Origin: Streptomyces sp. NBC_00237 | GTDB lineage: Bacteria > Actinomycetota > Actinomycetes > Streptomycetales > Streptomycetaceae | Assembly (NCBI RefSeq): GCF_026342435.1 | Contig: NZ_JAPEMT010000001.1 | Location: 1,296,501-1,360,500 of the forward strand | Length of the DNA: 64,000 nucleotides | Reading direction: 5' to 3' | In this document: positions 25,745-33,282 of the stretch, piece by piece | Position numbering within the stretch: the stretch's first letter is position 1 | Layout: each line of letters begins with the position of its first letter | Position numbers and translations under genes: made by a program | The notes under the pieces: generated by a model | Seen by the model: only the letters and a program-made list of their open reading frames with translations | The model's database searches: none | Told to the model about the DNA's origin: nothing

Positions 25745-25936
25745 CTACAGCCTGTTGCTTCGGAGGGCGTCGACGAACTGGACCCAAGAGTCATCGTTGA
25801 ACGCGAGCCTTGGGCCTCCCCTGGCCTTGCTGTCTCGTATGGCAGTCCCAGCTTGTGTGCCCGCGACCTCTACGCACTCGGTGTTCGCACCCCCGCTGTA
25901 CGAGGACTTGAACCAGTCAAGGGCATCGTTCGTCAT
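25745..25936 (-). CDS. DUF397 protein
   Basis: 63-aa protein with the DUF397 signature W-x-KSSYSGG-x-N-x-ECVEVA at its N-terminus and AIRDSKARGGPRLAF...WVQFVDALR at its C-terminus. It overlaps the XRE-DUF5753 regulator gene upstream by four bases (ATGA), so the two are translationally coupled. In Streptomyces such small proteins accompany WhiJ-like regulators and are proposed to modulate them, possibly as partner or antitoxin-like proteins. Confidence 0.88.
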   Translation of the reverse strand: MTNDALDWFKSSYSGGANTECVEVAGTQAGTAIRDSKARGGPRLAFNDDSWVQFVDALRSNRL

Positions 25937-26781
25937 GACATCTCCTTGTGGGCTCTCTTGATCAGCGCCGCCGAGGCGGTGATGTCGAGTGCCTGTGCGC
26001 GCAGGTAATCGAATGCCTGGCGGTAGCGGTCCAACTCTTCCTCCTTCTCAAGGAAGAGCGCCCCCGTGAGAATGTCCAGGTACACGACGTCCAGGGAGGG
26101 TTGTTGGCCGCCCAGGATAACGAAGCTGCCCATGGCGGAAGCGTGGGCGCCGGAGGCGAACGGCAGGATTTGTAGGGTCACATGAGGGGCATCCGCGCAG
26201 GCCAAGAGGTAGTCCAGTTGACTCCGCATGGTGCTGGTGCTGCCAACGCAGCGCCGGATCACGGACTCGTCCAGGACGGCCCAGATGTGCGGAGGCGTGG
26301 AACGCTTGAGGATCTCTTGGCGCTTCAGGCGGATGCTGACCTGACGTTCCACTTCCTTGGCGGGCTGACGCATGTCGGAGGCCCTGACGATTGCCTCTGC
26401 GTATCCGCGGGTCTGGAGGAGGCCGGGAACGTAGGCGCAGGCGAAGTGGTTCTCCTGGAGGGCCTCGTCTTCGAGCGTCAGAAGGAAGTTCATTGACTCG
26501 GGGATCTTGCTGCCCAGCGAGGTCCACCAACCTTGGACCCGGGCTTCCTTCGCAAGGGCGATGATCGCTTCGCGTTCAACGTCGCTGGCGCCGTAGGACC
26601 TGCAAAGGGCATCGGCGATCGGCCACTTGATGGGCCCCTCTTTCGTCTCGTAACGGCTGATGGTGGCCTTGGAGACGCCGATCAGTTTTCCGGCTTCCTC
26701 CAATGTCATGTCTCTTCGTTCGCGCAACTTGCGGAGTGTTGCGCCGAGTTGGCGTCTGCGTGTGGTGGGTCCGGTGGGCAC
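25933..26781 (-). CDS. XRE-family regulator with DUF5753 domain (WhiJ-like)
   Basis: 282-aa DNA-binding protein. An XRE helix-turn-helix is seen at residues ~10-60 (LRKLRERRDMTLEEAGKLIGVSKATISRYET), and the rest (QENHFACAYVPGLLQTRGYAEAIVRA ... LDESVIRRCVG ... LPFASGAHASAMGSFVIL) is the DUF5753 domain. Paralogues number in the tens in Streptomyces, and WhiJ represses development genes. It forms an operon with the DUF397 gene and is divergent from an RsbW-like ATPase gene. An inverted repeat between them (26883-26913) is a likely operator. Confidence 0.9.
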   Translation of the reverse strand: MPTGPTTRRRQLGATLRKLRERRDMTLEEAGKLIGVSKATISRYETKEGPIKWPIADALCRSYGASDVEREAIIALAKEARVQGWWTSLGSKIPESMNFLLTLEDEALQENHFACAYVPGLLQTRGYAEAIVRASDMRQPAKEVERQVSIRLKRQEILKRSTPPHIWAVLDESVIRRCVGSTSTMRSQLDYLLACADAPHVTLQILPFASGAHASAMGSFVILGGQQPSLDVVYLDILTGALFLEKEEELDRYRQAFDYLRAQALDITASAALIKRAHKEMS

Positions 26782-26882
26782 GGGGTCTCCGATCTCTGCT
26801 CGCTGGGCGACCCAGCGGTCTCCTCAACTATGGATATTTCACTCGAAGTTGCCTTCCCCGCGAGCCTTTCGAGGGAAGTTTT

Positions 26883-26913
26883 CGTGAGAAGTTGCACGAG
26901 GTGACTTCTCACG
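26883..26913. promoter_or_regulatory. Inverted repeat in divergent regulator/ATPase promoter
   Basis: CGTGAGAAGT (26883-26892) and ACTTCTCACG (26904-26913) are perfect 10-bp arms separated by 11 bp. They lie between the XRE gene and the RsbW-like gene. GAAGTT motifs recur nearby at about 26847 and 26874. This is a candidate operator for the XRE protein. Confidence 0.6.
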
Positions 26914-27002
26914 GGCCATACTCGCAGACGTATCGCTACGCAGCGCAGTCGTATGGATACGGCATGTGCATTGCTGTCGTGGCTACGAGAGGGAGTGCGG
27001 CC

Positions 27003-27641
27003 ATGCGCGACAACGCAGTCACCATCACCCGATCCCCGGCCCGCTGTGTGCTGGCCTTCGAAGCGAAACCGGCAGAGATGCGAGTGCTCCGCAGGTCGGT
27101 GCGCGAACACCTCCGGCAGTGGAGCGCGTTCGACCTCGCTGATGAGGTGGAGTTGGCGGTCACCGAGCTTGCGACGAACGTCATCAAGCACGTGGGTGAA
27201 CGTTCCGCGGCGACCCTGGTCATGGAAGCGAGTGCTGCGACGCTGCGAGTCGAGGTGCACGACACGAGCCACCAGCCTCCGATCTTCGGTGAGCCTGAGT
27301 GTGGTGCGGAGTGCGGGCGTGGTCTTCACCTGCTGGTCGGCATGGCGCTGGACTGGGGAACGGTGCAGACGGCAACAGGTAAGGCGGTGTGGTGTGAATT
27401 TTCGATGGCTGCGTGCGGGCAACGCTGGAAGGTGGAACGGGCGCTGGCGGCTCTGGTGGCCTACCGAGGGGATGAGGGGGTGGTGGACCTCAGCCTGACG
27501 AGAGTTCCCGTGCTGGAAGACTCGGCGACTTCACTCATCGCAGACCTGCTGTACTGCTTGATGGTCCAGGGGAGTGACCCAGTGGCGGTATTGGAGCACG
27601 CGCAAGATCACTACGTCGCCGAGTGCAGGCGGGCCGGATGA
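27003..27641 (+). CDS. RsbW-like ATP-binding protein (GHKL fold)
   Basis: 212-aa protein. Residues ~10-130 form an anti-sigma-type HATPase domain: LRRSVREHLRQW at the start, the N-box AVTELATNVIKHVGE, and the GRGLHLLVGMALDWG G2-box region with GKAVWCEF. A C-terminal ~70-residue extension is unassigned. Starts at ATG 27003 after GGGAG. In Streptomyces these ATPases accompany XRE-DUF5753/DUF397 gene pairs (for example the abaA and whiJ clusters), as here on the divergent strand. Its target is unknown. Confidence 0.85.
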   Translation: MRDNAVTITRSPARCVLAFEAKPAEMRVLRRSVREHLRQWSAFDLADEVELAVTELATNVIKHVGERSAATLVMEASAATLRVEVHDTSHQPPIFGEPECGAECGRGLHLLVGMALDWGTVQTATGKAVWCEFSMAACGQRWKVERALAALVAYRGDEGVVDLSLTRVPVLEDSATSLIADLLYCLMVQGSDPVAVLEHAQDHYVAECRRAG

Positions 27642-28006
27642 TGGCGTACGCGCCCATTCGCATCGCCGAGTTCTTGGCGGAACTCGGCGATGCTTCGTAT
27701 CAACTCCACGACACCAGCAGCCTCTGGTTCCTTATCAAGTCCGTCCAGAGTGTAGGGGATTTGTGGGAAGTGACGGTGTATCCGCTGGTCTCCACCGGGA
27801 GTCGGGATGACGCCTTCCTCGTGGGAGTAGAAGTTGCCGCCAACGTGGTCGCTACTTCCGCACCGGTGCAGTGGAGCGAGGTGGCGCCACCGTTGGGTGC
27901 ATACGGGGAAGAGGCGGTCATGTACGTACTCTCACGGATTGAAGAGATCGTAGAGGTGCTCAAGATGGACTATTGCAAGGCGGTCAACGCGGAGAAGTTC
28001 CGTTGA
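27638..28006 (+). CDS. Hypothetical protein coupled to the RsbW-like gene
   Basis: 122-aa soluble protein beginning MMAYAPIRIAEFLAELGDA. Its ATG overlaps the stop of the upstream ATPase (ATGATG arrangement), so translation is coupled. The sequence SLWFLIKSVQSVGDLWEVTVYPLV and a C-terminal helix rich in Val and Glu give no recognisable domain. Base composition is clearly lower in GC than most of the window, as for its neighbours. It may be a partner of the ATPase or an accessory gene of the island. Confidence 0.65.
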   Translation: MMAYAPIRIAEFLAELGDASYQLHDTSSLWFLIKSVQSVGDLWEVTVYPLVSTGSRDDAFLVGVEVAANVVATSAPVQWSEVAPPLGAYGEEAVMYVLSRIEEIVEVLKMDYCKAVNAEKFR

Positions 28007-28020
28007 AGGTAAAGAGGCCG

Positions 28021-28920
28021 CTACAGAGTGCGGCTGCTTTCAAATTTCTCTCCTTTGGGCCATATGGCGAACGCGGCAACTTCGTCGGAGTGACAGAGCT
28101 GTATGAGGTCGGCTCGTGGGCGCGACGGGAGGAGGAGCGCTATGTCCGGACGCGGGTCTATGTACCGCCGGTAGTCGAAGAGTTGACCTATGGCCATGCG
28201 GACTGCCTCACGTGTGACGGTTCCCTTCGCCTCGATCAAGAGGTTCTGAGTACTGTCGAAGAGATCGGTGTAGAGGGGCTTGATCTCTCCGGACGGGAGA
28301 ATCCTCTTACGGCCTACGGAATGGCCTTGCGAGCGTAGGTAGCGACGGTACGCCCGGACCAGCTTGGCCTCGTTCCGATCTGCTAGCCGTGGAACGCTGC
28401 TGGGGTTGACGGCCATGGACTCGACATGGAGTTGTTCTACTTCAACGTCTTCTACAAGGGTCTGCTGCGGCGGAGTGAAGGGGATCTCCGCTGTGGATGG
28501 TGACACGTCTATGGGACGCAGCCGAAACATGATGACGCTGCGGATATCGCCATCCCTGTCGGGGGCATCGGTTGTGTACCAAGGGCGTTGCGAGTCCAGC
28601 GTGAATTCTCCGACGAGGGCCACTACTCCGCTGGAGATGGATCGGTAGAGGTGGATCGTGCGGTTCTGATCCGTATGAGTCAGCACCGCGAGGTTCCCTT
28701 GGATCATGCGCTGGTCCCCGTACCGTCCCTCACCGGTGTAGTGGAAGCACCCGTCGTCGCCCCACCCGTCGAAGTAGCCGTTGGGGTGGCCACGAGAAGG
28801 GTCGGTGAAGAGCATGACTCGGGGGCTCTGCCGTGAAGGACTAATTCCCCCCTGCTGGCGTCCTCCGTAGCGGGTATGGAGTTCTCGTCTGCGTACGGGT
28901 GCTCCGGTGACTTCTTGCAA
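28021..28920 (-). CDS. Candidate modification-dependent endonuclease: ScoMcrA-like SRA domain plus PD-(D/E)XK nuclease
   Basis: 299-aa protein with a TTG start at 28920 (GGGGG a few bases upstream; no ATG fits). Residues ~3-135 match the SRA-like domain of ScoMcrA-type HNH endonucleases: RRRELHTRYGGRQQGGISPSR, MLFTD, GYFDGWGDDGCFHYTGEG, YGDQ..IQGN. Instead of HNH, the C-terminal half has a PD-(D/E)XK-like core: EAKLVRAYRRYLRSQGH, Asp219 in YTDLFD, Glu230/Lys232 in IEAKG, and a Gln246-containing helix. I infer cleavage of DNA carrying modified cytosine. It starts 41 bp after the helicase gene on the same strand. Confidence 0.75.
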   Translation of the reverse strand: MQEVTGAPVRRRELHTRYGGRQQGGISPSRQSPRVMLFTDPSRGHPNGYFDGWGDDGCFHYTGEGRYGDQRMIQGNLAVLTHTDQNRTIHLYRSISSGVVALVGEFTLDSQRPWYTTDAPDRDGDIRSVIMFRLRPIDVSPSTAEIPFTPPQQTLVEDVEVEQLHVESMAVNPSSVPRLADRNEAKLVRAYRRYLRSQGHSVGRKRILPSGEIKPLYTDLFDSTQNLLIEAKGTVTREAVRMAIGQLFDYRRYIDPRPDIALLLPSRPRADLIQLCHSDEVAAFAIWPKGEKFESSRTL

Positions 28921-28961
28921 CGTAGGCCCCCTGTGTATGGCTGGTCGTCTTCGTATGTTTC

Positions 28962-31900
28962 CTATGCAGCAATCGCCGAATAGGTCAACACCTCGGGGGG
29001 AAGCGGATGTTCCAGATCCCAGGTGATGGCCATCGGCTTGCTTCCTTCGTGGCGTACGTACTCGGCAGGGCCCAGCAGCATCCAAGGCTGAGAGCTGCCG
29101 ATGTCCGTGGTCTTGTAGCGGCGGGCGAAGAGAAGGACGTGGCTGCCCTCGGAGGCATGCTGCTGGTAGCGCTGGCCTGTTGGTGACGTCTCTGACGTCT
29201 GGTTCTGGGACTCCCAGTGGAACCTTGTCTCGCTCATCGCGTAGTCGCGGTAGCGGGTTTCCGGCGAGAAGTCCTTCTCGTCTTTTTCGAGGGTGATGAG
29301 AAGAGCGTCCGTCTTGAAGCTCTCGCACCATTTGACGCCTTCCCGGAAATGCCCGGGGAGGAACTTGTTGTAGGTGGACTGGCCGAGGGCAGGGAGGATC
29401 TCCTCGCGCGAGTACGACCCGTGCACGGTGAGAGGGAGACCGGCGAGCTCGCCCTCCAGCGGGCGGGGAACGTGCTCGGTGTGGGCCAGGTTGTAGGCCA
29501 AGACCTGGAGGAGTTCGTCGCGTACCGCAGGCTGGAGGTGCAGCGATGCGAAGCCCGCTTCGTAACTGTCGAAGCCGCTAAGGGGCCACAGGGAGAAGAA
29601 CAACATACGTGCGTATGCCTGCTCTTGCTCGGGTAGGTCGGCGTACGACGGAGCTTCGTCGCGCAGCAGCTTCGAGTAGACGGCTACTCGCACCGGATCG
29701 TCTACGTGCAGGAATGACGGCATGCGCTTGAGGAGAGCCGCCTCTCCTTCGGGCTCCGGTCCATCGAGGAGTCCAGCGCGTCGGAGGAGTCTCGTCCAGG
29801 AGTTGCCGTTTCCACGGTAGAGCTCCTTCAGTTCACGGCCGCTCTCATCGAGATACGTGGCCAAGCGCACTTCGCCGTAGGACGCGACCTCGCGCGCGAG
29901 GGCGGTGACGTTCACGCCGAGCTGGTTCTTGATGTTCTCCACGATCAACTTCTTGGCCTTGGGCTCCAGGATGATCTGGCAACCCGAAGGGAGCTGAGGG
30001 AAGTCGTCCTCGATGCTCTGCTGAAGGCGCTTGCGGGTCAGGTTGGTGAGCGCCCGGAACTGGTTCTCGAAGCGGAATTCCTTGCGGTGCTGGCCAATGA
30101 AGTCGAGGACGGTCAGGACCGCCTTGTCCTCGCTACGACGGAGGCCGCGCCCCAATTGCTGGAGGAAGACCGTAGCGCTGGAGGTGGGACGCAGCAGGAG
30201 CAGAGTGTCGACGTCGGGGACGTCCAATCCCTCGTTGAACAGGTCGACCGAGAAGATGACGTGGAGCTTGCCGTTGCGGAGATCGGCGAGGGCCTGCTGC
30301 CGTTCGGTGCGGGTGTTCTCACCTGACAGGGCCGCTGCACCGAGGCCCGCCCGGCGGAAGGCGTCCGCCATGAAGTGTGCATGGGCGACGGACACACAGA
30401 AGCCCAGGGCTCGCATCGAGCCGGGGTCCAACACCTTGTCCTGTACGGCCTTGATGACGAGGCGAGCCCGAGCGTCGTTGCCCGTGAAGACGTTGCTGAG
30501 TGAGCTGGCGACGTAACCGCCGCCCTTCCACTCCACCGCCCGCATGTCGGTGTTGTCGGTGATACCGAAGTAGTGGAAGGGGCTGAGGAGTTCATTTTCC
30601 AGGGCCTCCCAGAGACGCATCTCCGCCGCGATCCGGCCGTCGAAGAACTCGTCCTGGATGTTCTTCCCGTCCATGCGCTCGGGAGTTGCTGTCAGGCCGA
30701 GGAGCTCTTCGGGGAGGAAGTGGTCGATGATGCGTCGGTACGTGGGGGCTGTGCCGTGGTGGAATTCGTCGATCACGATCACGTCGAAGTGATCGGCCGA
30801 GAGCTGCTCCAGCGTGCGCGGGTGAAGCGACTGGACGCTCGCGAAGACATGCGTCCACCGTTCGGGGTTGTCGTTCCCGGTGAGAAGCTCCCCGAACTCG
30901 GCATCGTTGAGGACGTCTTGATACGTACGAAGGGACTGCTGCAAGATCTCCTGGCGGTGCGCGACGAAGAGGAGCCGTAGGTCGCGTCCCAGCTTCTGCC
31001 GCAGGTGCTTGTAGTCGAGTGCGGCCATGACGGTCTTGCCCGTGCCGGTGGCAGCGACGAGCAGGTTGCGGTGCCGGTCGTGGACCGTGCGTTCCACTTC
31101 CAGTCGCTCCAGCATGTCCCGCTGATGCGGGTAGGGCCGAACGTCGAGGCCGGAGAGCTGGATGCGGCGCTCGCCAGGCTGCCCCATCTTGCCGGAGGCC
31201 GCGCGTAGTGCCTCGGTCAGCCGGTCCCCGTCGCGTTCAGGGTCGTATGACTCGAAGGCGGCCTCGCTCCAGTACGAGTCGAAGGTCGCCTCGAACTTCC
31301 GTAGGACGGCCGGGGTGGCGACGGAGGAGAGCCTCACGTTCCATTCGAGACCTTCGAGCAGTGCCGCCTTGGACAGGTTGGAGCTGCCGACGTACGCGGT
31401 GTCGTACCCGCTGTTGCGCCGGAAGAGCCATGCCTTGGCGTGCAAACGGGTCGACCGAAGTTCGTAGTTGATCTTCACCTCGGCGCCGAATTCCTGGACG
31501 AGACGGTCGAGGGCGCGTCGCTCGGTGGCGCCGATGTAGGTCGTCGTGATGACCCTGATCGGGATGCCCCGTTCGCGAGCAGACTTCAGGGATTGCTCCA
31601 GGACCCGCAAGCCGTGCCACTTCACGAAGGCGCAGAGCAGGTCGACCCGGTCGGCCGTCGCTAGTTCGGCGCGCAACTCGAAGCCGAGGTTGGGGTCTTC
31701 GGGGGAGTTGGTGATCAGTGCGGTCTCGGAGAGAGGAGTGGCGGGCCGGATCGCGTAGACCCCGGGTGCCTCTTCCTCGGCGATGGAGAGGAGTTGGCGC
31801 GGGCCGTCCGCGATCAAGTCGACCCATTCGCGAGCTCCTTCGAGCGTGCCGATGGACTCAAGGATGTGGTTGGCCGCGTGGACGCGGTCGGCAGCAGGCA

Positions 31901-32096
31901 GGTTGTGCAGCAGCTGGCGCACGGTTTCCGCTACATGTCGGGCCAGTACATGGGGTGTTGACTCGGCACCGACGTCGCCGTCGATCGCCCGCCAGCCGCC
32001 GACCTCAAGGTCCTTCAGCTGTTGGGTGAGCCGGAGAGTGATCAACTGCTCGTAGATTCCGGGCGCGGGTTGGGATGCGCTGATCGCTGCGGTCAC
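28962..32096 (-). CDS. PLD-helicase-DUF3427 protein (probable defence ATPase)
   Basis: 1044-aa protein starting with GTG after CAGGAGG. Residues ~130-280 form a phospholipase-D-like domain with one HKD-type motif (LHAKAW, then GSSNLSKA, residues ~219-242). A superfamily 2 helicase follows: Walker A ATGTGKT (349-355), DEFH (443-446), TATP (469-472) and motif VI QQLGRGLRR (646-654). From ~700 to the end is the DUF3427 region, ending FHWESQNQTSETSPTG and PWMLLGPAEYVRHEG. Such proteins recur in restriction and defence islands. With the downstream SRA-nuclease it probably forms a DNA-targeting system. Confidence 0.85.
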   Translation of the reverse strand: MTAAISASQPAPGIYEQLITLRLTQQLKDLEVGGWRAIDGDVGAESTPHVLARHVAETVRQLLHNLPAADRVHAANHILESIGTLEGAREWVDLIADGPRQLLSIAEEEAPGVYAIRPATPLSETALITNSPEDPNLGFELRAELATADRVDLLCAFVKWHGLRVLEQSLKSARERGIPIRVITTTYIGATERRALDRLVQEFGAEVKINYELRSTRLHAKAWLFRRNSGYDTAYVGSSNLSKAALLEGLEWNVRLSSVATPAVLRKFEATFDSYWSEAAFESYDPERDGDRLTEALRAASGKMGQPGERRIQLSGLDVRPYPHQRDMLERLEVERTVHDRHRNLLVAATGTGKTVMAALDYKHLRQKLGRDLRLLFVAHRQEILQQSLRTYQDVLNDAEFGELLTGNDNPERWTHVFASVQSLHPRTLEQLSADHFDVIVIDEFHHGTAPTYRRIIDHFLPEELLGLTATPERMDGKNIQDEFFDGRIAAEMRLWEALENELLSPFHYFGITDNTDMRAVEWKGGGYVASSLSNVFTGNDARARLVIKAVQDKVLDPGSMRALGFCVSVAHAHFMADAFRRAGLGAAALSGENTRTERQQALADLRNGKLHVIFSVDLFNEGLDVPDVDTLLLLRPTSSATVFLQQLGRGLRRSEDKAVLTVLDFIGQHRKEFRFENQFRALTNLTRKRLQQSIEDDFPQLPSGCQIILEPKAKKLIVENIKNQLGVNVTALAREVASYGEVRLATYLDESGRELKELYRGNGNSWTRLLRRAGLLDGPEPEGEAALLKRMPSFLHVDDPVRVAVYSKLLRDEAPSYADLPEQEQAYARMLFFSLWPLSGFDSYEAGFASLHLQPAVRDELLQVLAYNLAHTEHVPRPLEGELAGLPLTVHGSYSREEILPALGQSTYNKFLPGHFREGVKWCESFKTDALLITLEKDEKDFSPETRYRDYAMSETRFHWESQNQTSETSPTGQRYQQHASEGSHVLLFARRYKTTDIGSSQPWMLLGPAEYVRHEGSKPMAITWDLEHPLPPEVLTYSAIAA

Positions 32097-32262: not shown

Positions 32263-33282
32263 TCAGGCCGGGTTCGGTACTCCGTGGCAGTCCCGGTACG
32301 GGGTGTTCGAGCCGCACCAGCAGGAGGCTGAAGCGGTGGGGGGCCAGGGGACGGCGCGGCCCCTCGCGGCCAGGGTGGTGGCGTATTCGGCGAGGAGGGA
32401 GGGGGAGTCGGGGGAGGTGCGTTCGGAGGCGGCGAAGGCTTCGTAGGAGGGGATGGAGCCCGTGACGACGCCGAGGTTGGGGGTGCCTGCCGAGGACAGT
32501 TCGCGCAGGGAGGACTCCAGGGTGGCCAGGTGCTCGGCGTGGGTGGGCGGGTATTCGGCGGCCAGGGTGGGGTGGGTGGAGAGGAGTTCGGCGTACTCGG
32601 TGGCCGGCCAGTGGAGGAGGGCCACCGGGAAGGGGCGGGAGAGTGCGGCGCGGTAGCTGCCGAGTTCTGCCTGGAGGCGGGTGATCTCGGCGCGGAGTTC
32701 GGCGGGGTCGGAGGAGCCGAGGGCCCAGAGGCGCTTCGGGTCGTGGAGTTCGTCGAGGGGGACGGAGGCCGGGTTGACCGTGTCCGCCAGGGCGTCCCAG
32801 CTGTCGTGGGCCTTGCCCAGCATGCGGCGGACGCGGTGGCGGCCGGTGAGGAGGGGGCGGGTCGCGTACGGGACTTCCTCGGAGGGGTTCACGAGGAGGG
32901 TGAGGGCGGTGGTGTAGGCGTCGTGGGCCTGCGGAAGCTCGTCGTGGTTTTCGAGGGCTTCGGCGAGGACCACCCAGGGCTCGGGGGCGCGGGGGGCCGA
33001 CGTGCGGATGCCGTCGATGATCGCGCGGGCCTCGGCCTCGTGACCGTACTCCCAGAGGTTGGCCGCTTTGAGGGCCTTGATGAGGGGGGTGCTCTCGGCG
33101 GTGGGGGCCGTGAGGAGCTGGTCGTAGAGGGTGGCGGCGCGGGCCCGGTCTCCGGCGAGTTCGAGGTGGGCCGCCGCCTGGAGGAGAAGGGGCTCCTGGT
33201 CCTCCGGGTACTGCGCCGCGGTGCGCAGCAGACGCTCGGCTTCGGTCGTGTGGTCGGCGGGCGAAGGCGTGTCGGGGCGCAT
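32263..33282 (-). CDS. SEC-C motif protein with TPR-like repeats
   Basis: 339-aa soluble protein. The N-terminal ~150 residues are helical TPR-like (EAERLLRTAAQYPEDQEPLLLQAAAHLELAGDRARAATLYDQLL). The C-terminus carries a zinc-binding SEC-C motif, CWCGSNTPYRDCHG. SEC-C motifs occur in SecA and in many small accessory proteins, where they bind zinc and proteins or nucleic acids. MRPDTPSP at 33282 is taken as the start; the longer frame runs through low-complexity shadow. It is next to the candidate defence island but has the high GC of the core genome. Confidence 0.8.
   Translation of the reverse strand: MRPDTPSPADHTTEAERLLRTAAQYPEDQEPLLLQAAAHLELAGDRARAATLYDQLLTAPTAESTPLIKALKAANLWEYGHEAEARAIIDGIRTSAPRAPEPWVVLAEALENHDELPQAHDAYTTALTLLVNPSEEVPYATRPLLTGRHRVRRMLGKAHDSWDALADTVNPASVPLDELHDPKRLWALGSSDPAELRAEITRLQAELGSYRAALSRPFPVALLHWPATEYAELLSTHPTLAAEYPPTHAEHLATLESSLRELSSAGTPNLGVVTGSIPSYEAFAASERTSPDSPSLLAEYATTLAARGRAVPWPPTASASCWCGSNTPYRDCHGVPNPA

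What the first reader, a model, noticed from the sequence alone, without database searches (positions are those of the whole stretch)
28021..32096. Compact candidate anti-phage module: SRA-PD-(D/E)XK nuclease with PLD-helicase-DUF3427
A 299-aa protein fuses a ScoMcrA-like SRA domain to a PD-(D/E)XK-type nuclease core (Asp219, Glu230, Lys232) in place of the usual HNH. It is 41 bp from a 1044-aa protein with an HKD motif, an SF2 helicase and DUF3427, on the same strand. Both lie in DNA of lower GC than the flanks. SRA domains read modified cytosine, so the pair may be a modification-dependent restriction system with an ATP-driven motor. The domain combination is not one I can name.
Basis: partly seen in the sequence, partly recalled or inferred. 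Interest (0 to 1): 0.78.

Follow-up and report, generated by a model that had tools for sequence, protein, structure and literature searches.

The report
Two-gene restriction module against modified DNA
Two neighbouring genes in a Streptomyces genome encode a relative of SauUSI, a known ATP-driven enzyme that shreds methylated DNA, and a small protein predicted to join a modified-cytosine reader to a DNA cutter; together they would likely destroy incoming modified DNA, and the pairing appears to have arisen more than once in the genus, with the small protein's cutting motif altered in two groups where it may serve only as a reader.

The parts
28962..32096 (-). SauUSI-type restriction enzyme gene: PLD nuclease, SF2 ATPase, DUF3427; 1044 aa, GTG start
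   Evidence: Pfam PLDc_2/ResIII/Helicase_C/DUF3427; PADLOC mREase_IV 1507.7 bits; SauUSI 7clg_A E 8.2e-80
31269..31598 (-). PLDc_2 domain (aa 167-276) with HxK at aa 219-221, N240, E251
31032..31052 (-). Walker A motif ATGTGKT (aa 349-355)
   Evidence: K354 in 87 of 87 aligned helicases
30138..31139 (-). SF2 ATPase: ResIII (aa 320-474) to Helicase_C (aa 562-653)
28980..29528 (-). DUF3427 domain (aa 857-1039); holds D951 and W961, aligned with SauUSI pocket residues D858 and W868
   Evidence: the alignment of this part alone is weak (14.2 bits)
28927..28932 (-). ribosome-binding-like AGGGGG, 6 nt before the TTG start of the nuclease
   Evidence: read from the sequence
28021..28920 (-). SRA-PD-(D/E)XK protein gene, 299 aa, TTG start
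28489..28920 (-). ScoMcrA-type SRA domain (aa 1-144); Y49, D51, Y61
28027..28386 (-). PD-(D/E)XK nuclease domain (aa 179-298); D219, E230, K232
32263..33282 (-). TPR/SEC-C protein, conserved upstream neighbour of the helicase locus
   Evidence: its cluster within 3.2 kb in 59 of 89 other helicase loci; a match in 242 of 295 genus genomes
25933..26781 (-). HTH-DUF5753 regulator, conserved downstream neighbour
   Evidence: its cluster in 56 of 89 loci
26703..27641 (+). HATPase_c_2 protein, conserved neighbour of the locus (start uncertain)
   Evidence: its cluster in 45 of 89 loci
27638..28006 (+). small convergent ORF of unknown function (122 aa), no Pfam hit at E 1 or below

Best explanation
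The window carries a gene with the domain order and motifs of the Type IV restriction enzyme SauUSI (PLD nuclease, SF2 ATPase, DUF3427), followed 41 bp later on the same strand by a gene for a protein predicted to fuse a ScoMcrA-type SRA reader to a PD-(D/E)XK nuclease, and the two likely act as one co-expressed barrier against DNA carrying 5-methyl- or 5-hydroxymethylcytosine. Proposed mechanism: the helicase would read a modified cytosine with its own C-terminal DUF3427 (SRA-fold) domain, hydrolyse ATP, translocate and cut both strands with its PLD dimer; this is taken from SauUSI and inferred here. The second protein would flip modified cytosines in other sequence contexts with its own SRA domain and, in the window, probably can also cut by itself in the manner of MspJI/AspBHI; it would widen the range of modified sites that trigger destruction and may help to place the motor (inferred). 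Shown here: the two architectures, intact motifs, adjacency of more than one origin, and loss of the nuclease motif with the SRA residues kept in two groups of adjacent genes. Not shown: transcription as one message, complex formation, substrate, cleavage, phage resistance.
Against: Most genomes with either gene lack the adjacency, and stand-alone nucleases show no conserved partner (no neighbour family in more than 8 of 62 loci), so neither protein needs the other. The gene order varies (before, after, divergent), which argues against a fixed complex. Outside Streptomyces no adjacency was seen in the 325-genome class sample (only G551, G575 and G585 had both), and 6 fetched helicase loci of other genera held none of the partner families. 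Other reader-nucleases sit at this locus without the helicase (6 of 60), so part of the linkage may reflect a defence hotspot. Co-presence beyond the adjacent cases is not clear (Fisher p 0.051). In one adjacent locus with a degenerate nuclease (L128) the helicase itself is in two pieces.
Confidence: 0.6

Rival explanations
1. Immigration-control hotspot: two complete, independent Type IV enzymes that happen to share a chromosomal site where modification-dependent nucleases collect; no functional interplay.
For: The site takes other Type IV-like genes: an SRA-HNH cluster in 8 of 89 helicase loci, a cluster whose scanned member has MrcB_N in 6, a ScoMcrA-like gene in 1, a GmrSD_N protein in L109 and a DUF6602 protein in L045. 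The SRA-HNH and MrcB_N clusters also occur near the site without the helicase in 3 + 3 of 60. The window's nuclease motif is intact. Such regions are described in E. coli and Listeria (PMC10059834, passages).
Confidence: 0.35
2. The second protein is a separable specificity subunit of the motor: it binds modified DNA and loads the SauUSI-type enzyme, its nuclease being auxiliary or vestigial.
For: Loss of E-x-K with the SRA triad kept in all 11 adjacent degenerate loci (10, L123 read); among the listed proteins, 64 of 64 readable ones at 56% or more identity to the L100 protein are degenerate against 1 of 172 others (P0001, the window's own protein, is among the 172; the boundary was set after seeing the motif); SRA triad kept in 61 of 62 readable degenerate rows; the full-length helicases next to this family keep PLD and ATPase motifs (16 of 16); the four S/A-x-R loci share a third gene.
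Against: The helicase's own DUF3427 residues D951 and W961 are kept in the paired set (16 of 16); the window copy is intact; two clades only, one origin barely rejected (AU 0.036, groups chosen after seeing the data); independent-pairs test not significant (4 supported pairs, median p 1); L128's helicase is in two pieces.
Confidence: 0.25
3. The pair serves chromosome maintenance (repair or turnover of the cell's own modified DNA) rather than defence.
For: The locus is conserved and next to regulators (DUF5753, HATPase); the helicase shows distant similarity to RadD.
Against: Patchy presence (91 of 295 and 58 of 295), far better match to SauUSI than to RadD (E 8e-80 against 2e-17), and neighbours of Type IV kind.
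Confidence: 0.05

Closest known systems
SauUSI (Staphylococcus aureus; PDB 7clg)
   Same: PLD nuclease, SF2 ATPase, C-terminal reader (DUF3427, SRA fold) in one chain; HxK/N/E and ATPase motifs; pocket residues D858 and W868 align with D951 and W961.
   Different: About 90 aa longer; only aa 144-674 align confidently, the C-terminal alignment alone is weak (14.2 bits); here a second reader-nuclease gene lies next to it.
ScoA3I (Sco2863) of S. coelicolor
   Same: Listed as acting on m5C in vivo (table in PMC3874153, passages) and described as a putative helicase with an hsdR-like domain (PMC1934918, passages).
   Different: Its sequence was not compared here; orthology is a lead only.
MspJI / AspBHI (SRA plus PD-(D/E)XK)
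   Same: N-terminal SRA, C-terminal PD-(D/E)XK; best whole-chain fold match.
   Different: The MspJI family has a QxK site (PMC12707154, passages), here ExK; no sequence match to either in the PDB searches; the SRA is of the ScoMcrA type.
ScoMcrA (PDB 5zmm)
   Different: ScoMcrA has a sulfur-binding domain in front and an HNH nuclease behind; this protein has neither.
Immigration control regions (E. coli, Listeria)
   Same: A fixed chromosomal site with exchangeable restriction systems (PMC10059834, passages).
   Different: Here the exchanged genes are largely modification readers next to one recurrent SauUSI-type gene.

Membership tests
SauUSI-type Type IV restriction enzymes | N-terminal PLD nuclease with HxK | tested here: met
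SauUSI-type Type IV restriction enzymes | SF2 ATPase in the middle | tested here: met
SauUSI-type Type IV restriction enzymes | C-terminal DUF3427 domain | tested here: met
   DUF3427 E 1.3e-19; same register as SauUSI's reader at 14.2 bits
SauUSI-type Type IV restriction enzymes | SRA fold of that domain | tested here: inconclusive
   the helicase model was too poor to judge (pLDDT 42.8); SauUSI's own reader is an SRA fold
SauUSI-type Type IV restriction enzymes | ATP-dependent cleavage of 5mC/5hmC DNA, homodimer | not testable with these tools
   needs purified protein
MspJI family | N-terminal SRA-like plus C-terminal PD-(D/E)XK fold | tested here: met
MspJI family | QxK catalytic site | tested here: not met
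   window has E230-A-K232; no Q at that place in 127 aligned sequences
ScoMcrA (SBD-SRA-HNH) | ScoMcrA-like SRA domain | tested here: met
ScoMcrA (SBD-SRA-HNH) | HNH nuclease | tested here: not met
   C-terminal half is modelled as a PD-(D/E)XK fold and carries D..ExK
ScoMcrA (SBD-SRA-HNH) | N-terminal sulfur-binding domain | tested here: not met
   the SRA match begins at residue 1 of the 299-aa protein

The most novel reading that the evidence does not exclude
Streptomyces has built, more than once, a two-subunit Type IV system: a SauUSI-type motor-nuclease plus an exchangeable modified-DNA reader recruited from stand-alone SRA endonucleases, whose own nuclease then decays into a structural domain; the window shows an early stage with both nucleases intact.
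Probability: 0.28. Interest if true: 0.72.

Novelty: new variant of a known kind. Interest (0 to 1): 0.5.

Why it matters
Type IV enzymes are a known barrier to methylated DNA in S. coelicolor (table and passages of PMC3874153). If the pairing is functional, a SauUSI-type enzyme can gain new modified targets by taking on a separate reader, a route to new specificity that I know of for no single-chain enzyme of this kind (recalled). The paired, unpaired and nuclease-degenerate versions give a ready series to test it, and point to loci to delete when a strain resists transformation.

Tried and rejected
The local Pfam copy gave no SRA hit for the nuclease; profile, fold and precomputed Pfam results were used instead. 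PADLOC gave no family for it. AlphaFold2 of the helicase on 7 sequences was poor (pLDDT 42.8) and is not used. An obligate pair was rejected: 73 of 91 helicase genomes and 40 of 58 nuclease genomes in the genus sample lack the adjacency. One inherited linkage was rejected (AU 1.9e-9; group named after seeing the data). The link between adjacency and motif loss is strong by simple count (Fisher 2e-5 on 11 of 22 against 3 of 56; L045, intact, was added later, making 11 of 23) but not in the phylogeny-aware test (4 supported pairs, median p 1): it rests on two clades.

Corrections and limits. Four rows (L151, L152, L158, L160) read as degenerate in the alignment and were re-scored as intact because one search shows E-V-K; without that the stand-alone count would be 7 of 56. 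Rows dropped: L249 (same genome as L073) from the nuclease set; L274 and L275 from the nuclease tree only; other overlaps between the unnamed and the named genomes were not checked. In the helicase tree L045 is labelled as without partner, and L125, L128 and L129, whose helicase was found only in pieces, are absent. Of 91 helicase genomes G144 (a C-terminal fragment) was not fetched; L126 and L127 match only the helicase part (from aa 324). The 60 helicase-free loci were taken mostly from the top of the list by similarity of the TPR/SEC-C gene, not at random; there up to 9 kb behind that gene were searched, against 3.2 kb on either side of the helicase, and one hit (L199) lies several genes away. 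Of the stand-alone nuclease loci, 31 were fetched. My gene caller missed the L045 nuclease and cut L123; both were read. The MrcB_N and SRA-HNH labels of two clusters rest on one scanned member each. Promoter-like and terminator-like scans were at chance level. Literature: full-text searches; lists were cut at 30 of 39, 30 of 52, 20 of 25 and 15 of 23. No listed title or abstract start, and no passage read (sections in 95, 96; abstract in 80), describes a SauUSI-type gene paired with an SRA nuclease; no whole paper was read, and most subscription journals are not held.
Full report
Observation. The window lies in a 9.2 Mb genome with one match to each protein. The genus is Streptomyces by inference: G180, of the same genus, has a contig of 10,901,646 bases, the length of the S. 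himastatinicus record, with the nuclease at the same place.

The large protein. Pfam gives PLDc_2, ResIII, Helicase_C and DUF3427. PADLOC names it mREase_IV at 1507.7 bits. The best solved relative by sequence is SauUSI, 7clg, E 8.2e-80, with HxK, GSSN and the E and N of the next PLD motif, and the ATPase motifs, aligned. From the SauUSI paper (abstract and passages of PMC7913695): PLD nuclease, SF2 ATPase, coupler and a C-terminal reader with the SRA fold; reading 5mC switches on the ATPase, the enzyme translocates and shreds DNA. Two of its pocket residues, D858 and W868, align with D951 and W961 of the window protein (this part of the alignment is weak by itself), which are kept in 86 and 87 of 87 helicases.

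Co-occurrence. In 295 genomes of the genus the nuclease is in 58 and the helicase in 91. By coordinates, counted by hand, 34 genomes have both and 18 have them within 3 kb on one contig. In named genomes 6 of 34 nuclease loci have the helicase next door: S. sabulosicollis, S. hygroscopicus, S. himastatinicus, S. sp. S465 and S. samsunensis with the nuclease first, S. xanthochromogenes with the helicase first as in the window. The last has the TPR gene, helicase, nuclease, HATPase-like gene and HTH regulator in the window's order (the small convergent ORF was not called there). In a class-wide sample of 325 genomes the nuclease is in 24 and the helicase in 48; adjacency appears only in G000 and G571, both of the genus, while 3 genomes of other genera have both genes apart. 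Six helicase loci of other genera hold none of the partner families.

The locus. I fetched 89 helicase loci (all other helicase-positive genomes but G144). The helicase's neighbours within 3.2 kb include a TPR/SEC-C gene in 59 of 89, an HTH-DUF5753 gene in 56, a HATPase gene in 45 and a short conserved protein in 23. They also include the SRA-PD-(D/E)XK gene in 17 (16 by gene calling, and L045 by reading), an SRA-HNH cluster in 8, a MrcB_N cluster in 6 (four of whose members match the nuclease half of the window's protein), and a ScoMcrA-like gene in 1 (SRA match, HNH, PADLOC model PDLC03662 at 541 bits): 32 of 89 with a second modification reader. As a control I read the region behind the TPR/SEC-C gene in 60 genomes without the helicase: 0 SRA-PD-(D/E)XK, 3 SRA-HNH, 3 MrcB_N type, 6 of 60 in all. 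Fisher p is 2e-4 for the first family and 5e-4 for all (on 16 and 31 of 89, before L045 was added); phylogeny is not corrected for.

How often did the pair arise? On the helicase tree presence of the SRA-PD-(D/E)XK partner needs 10 changes, at least 9 forced by supported branches (L045 was labelled without partner there); gains and losses cannot be told apart. On the nuclease tree adjacency needs 6 changes and a single clade of adjacent nucleases is rejected (AU 1.9e-9). The window's nuclease falls in a supported set of 10 of which 7 are adjacent to the helicase; in the other three (L242, L245, L247) no remnant of the helicase was found nearby.

Decay of the nuclease. Among 23 adjacent SRA-PD-(D/E)XK genes (window, 17 genus loci, 5 more named loci), 11 have lost E or K of the motif, in two groups: S/A-x-R in L093, L100, L111, L119, and E-P-T, E-A-M or Q-P-T in L088, L104, L106, L118, L122, L123, L128. 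All 11 keep Y-D-Y of the SRA domain (10, L123). Of 56 stand-alone genes 3 have lost the motif (after re-scoring four misaligned rows), and those 3 have changed two of the three SRA residues as well. In the protein lists, 64 of 64 readable proteins at 56% or more identity to the L100 protein are degenerate, against 1 of 172 others. They are not obvious pseudogenes: mean pairwise identity of 65 degenerate rows is 0.73 in the SRA half and 0.65 in the nuclease half, against 0.60 and 0.57 in 119 intact ones. The full-length helicases next to this family keep their PLD and ATPase motifs (16 of 16); that of L128 is in two pieces. One origin of the degenerate adjacent set is only just rejected (AU 0.036), and the independent-pairs test has too few cases.

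Reading. The helicase should by itself be a SauUSI-like Type IV enzyme. The second protein should by itself be a reader-nuclease of MspJI-like layout. Their repeated linkage, and the groups where the second keeps only its reader, suggest that the useful contribution of the second protein next to a SauUSI-type motor is reading. The window's pair, with everything intact, is best described as a joint Type IV barrier; complex formation is open. The strongest rival is a Type IV hotspot without interplay, supported by other reader-nucleases found at the same site with and without the helicase.

Novelty. Each protein is a new member or variant of a known kind. The recurrent pairing and the apparent turning of a nuclease into a reader next to a SauUSI-type gene were not seen in the listings and passages of the searches, in a library without most subscription journals. 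A loosely similar case in print is a variable region in Streptococcus beside an EVE-domain gene, in whose figure legend SauUSI homologues are named (PMC7641849, sections 11 and 20).

Noticed in passing
L093, L100 (11192-12169), L111, L119: A third gene of about 324 aa follows the degenerate SRA protein in the same direction in all four loci, which looks like a three-gene operon; the L100 copy has no Pfam or PADLOC hit.
   Followed up: partly
L041, L043, L050, L066, L077, L078: A divergent gene 150-365 bp from the SauUSI-type gene; the member scanned (L066) has MrcB_N, and four of the six match the nuclease half of the window's protein: another reader-nuclease layout at the same site.
   Followed up: partly
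L058, L063, L069, L072, L074, L084, L087, L091: SRA-HNH (TagI-like) genes next to the SauUSI-type gene, divergent in all but L063; the member scanned is L091; in L084 the gene was called in two pieces.
   Followed up: partly
L109:10808-12019, L045:5938-6801, L081:10287-11708: A GmrSD_N protein, a DUF6602 protein and a ScoMcrA-like protein near the SauUSI-type gene.
   Followed up: partly
L119 against L122: Sister helicases carry nucleases of different clades (S-x-R type and E-P-T type), which suggests exchange of the partner cassette at one site.
   Followed up: no
G057, G089, G276: Some SauUSI-type genes in relatives are in two pieces, so the gene is sometimes lost.
   Followed up: no
L147, L148, L150: A small stand-alone group in which both the nuclease motif and two SRA residues have changed; function unknown.
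   Followed up: no
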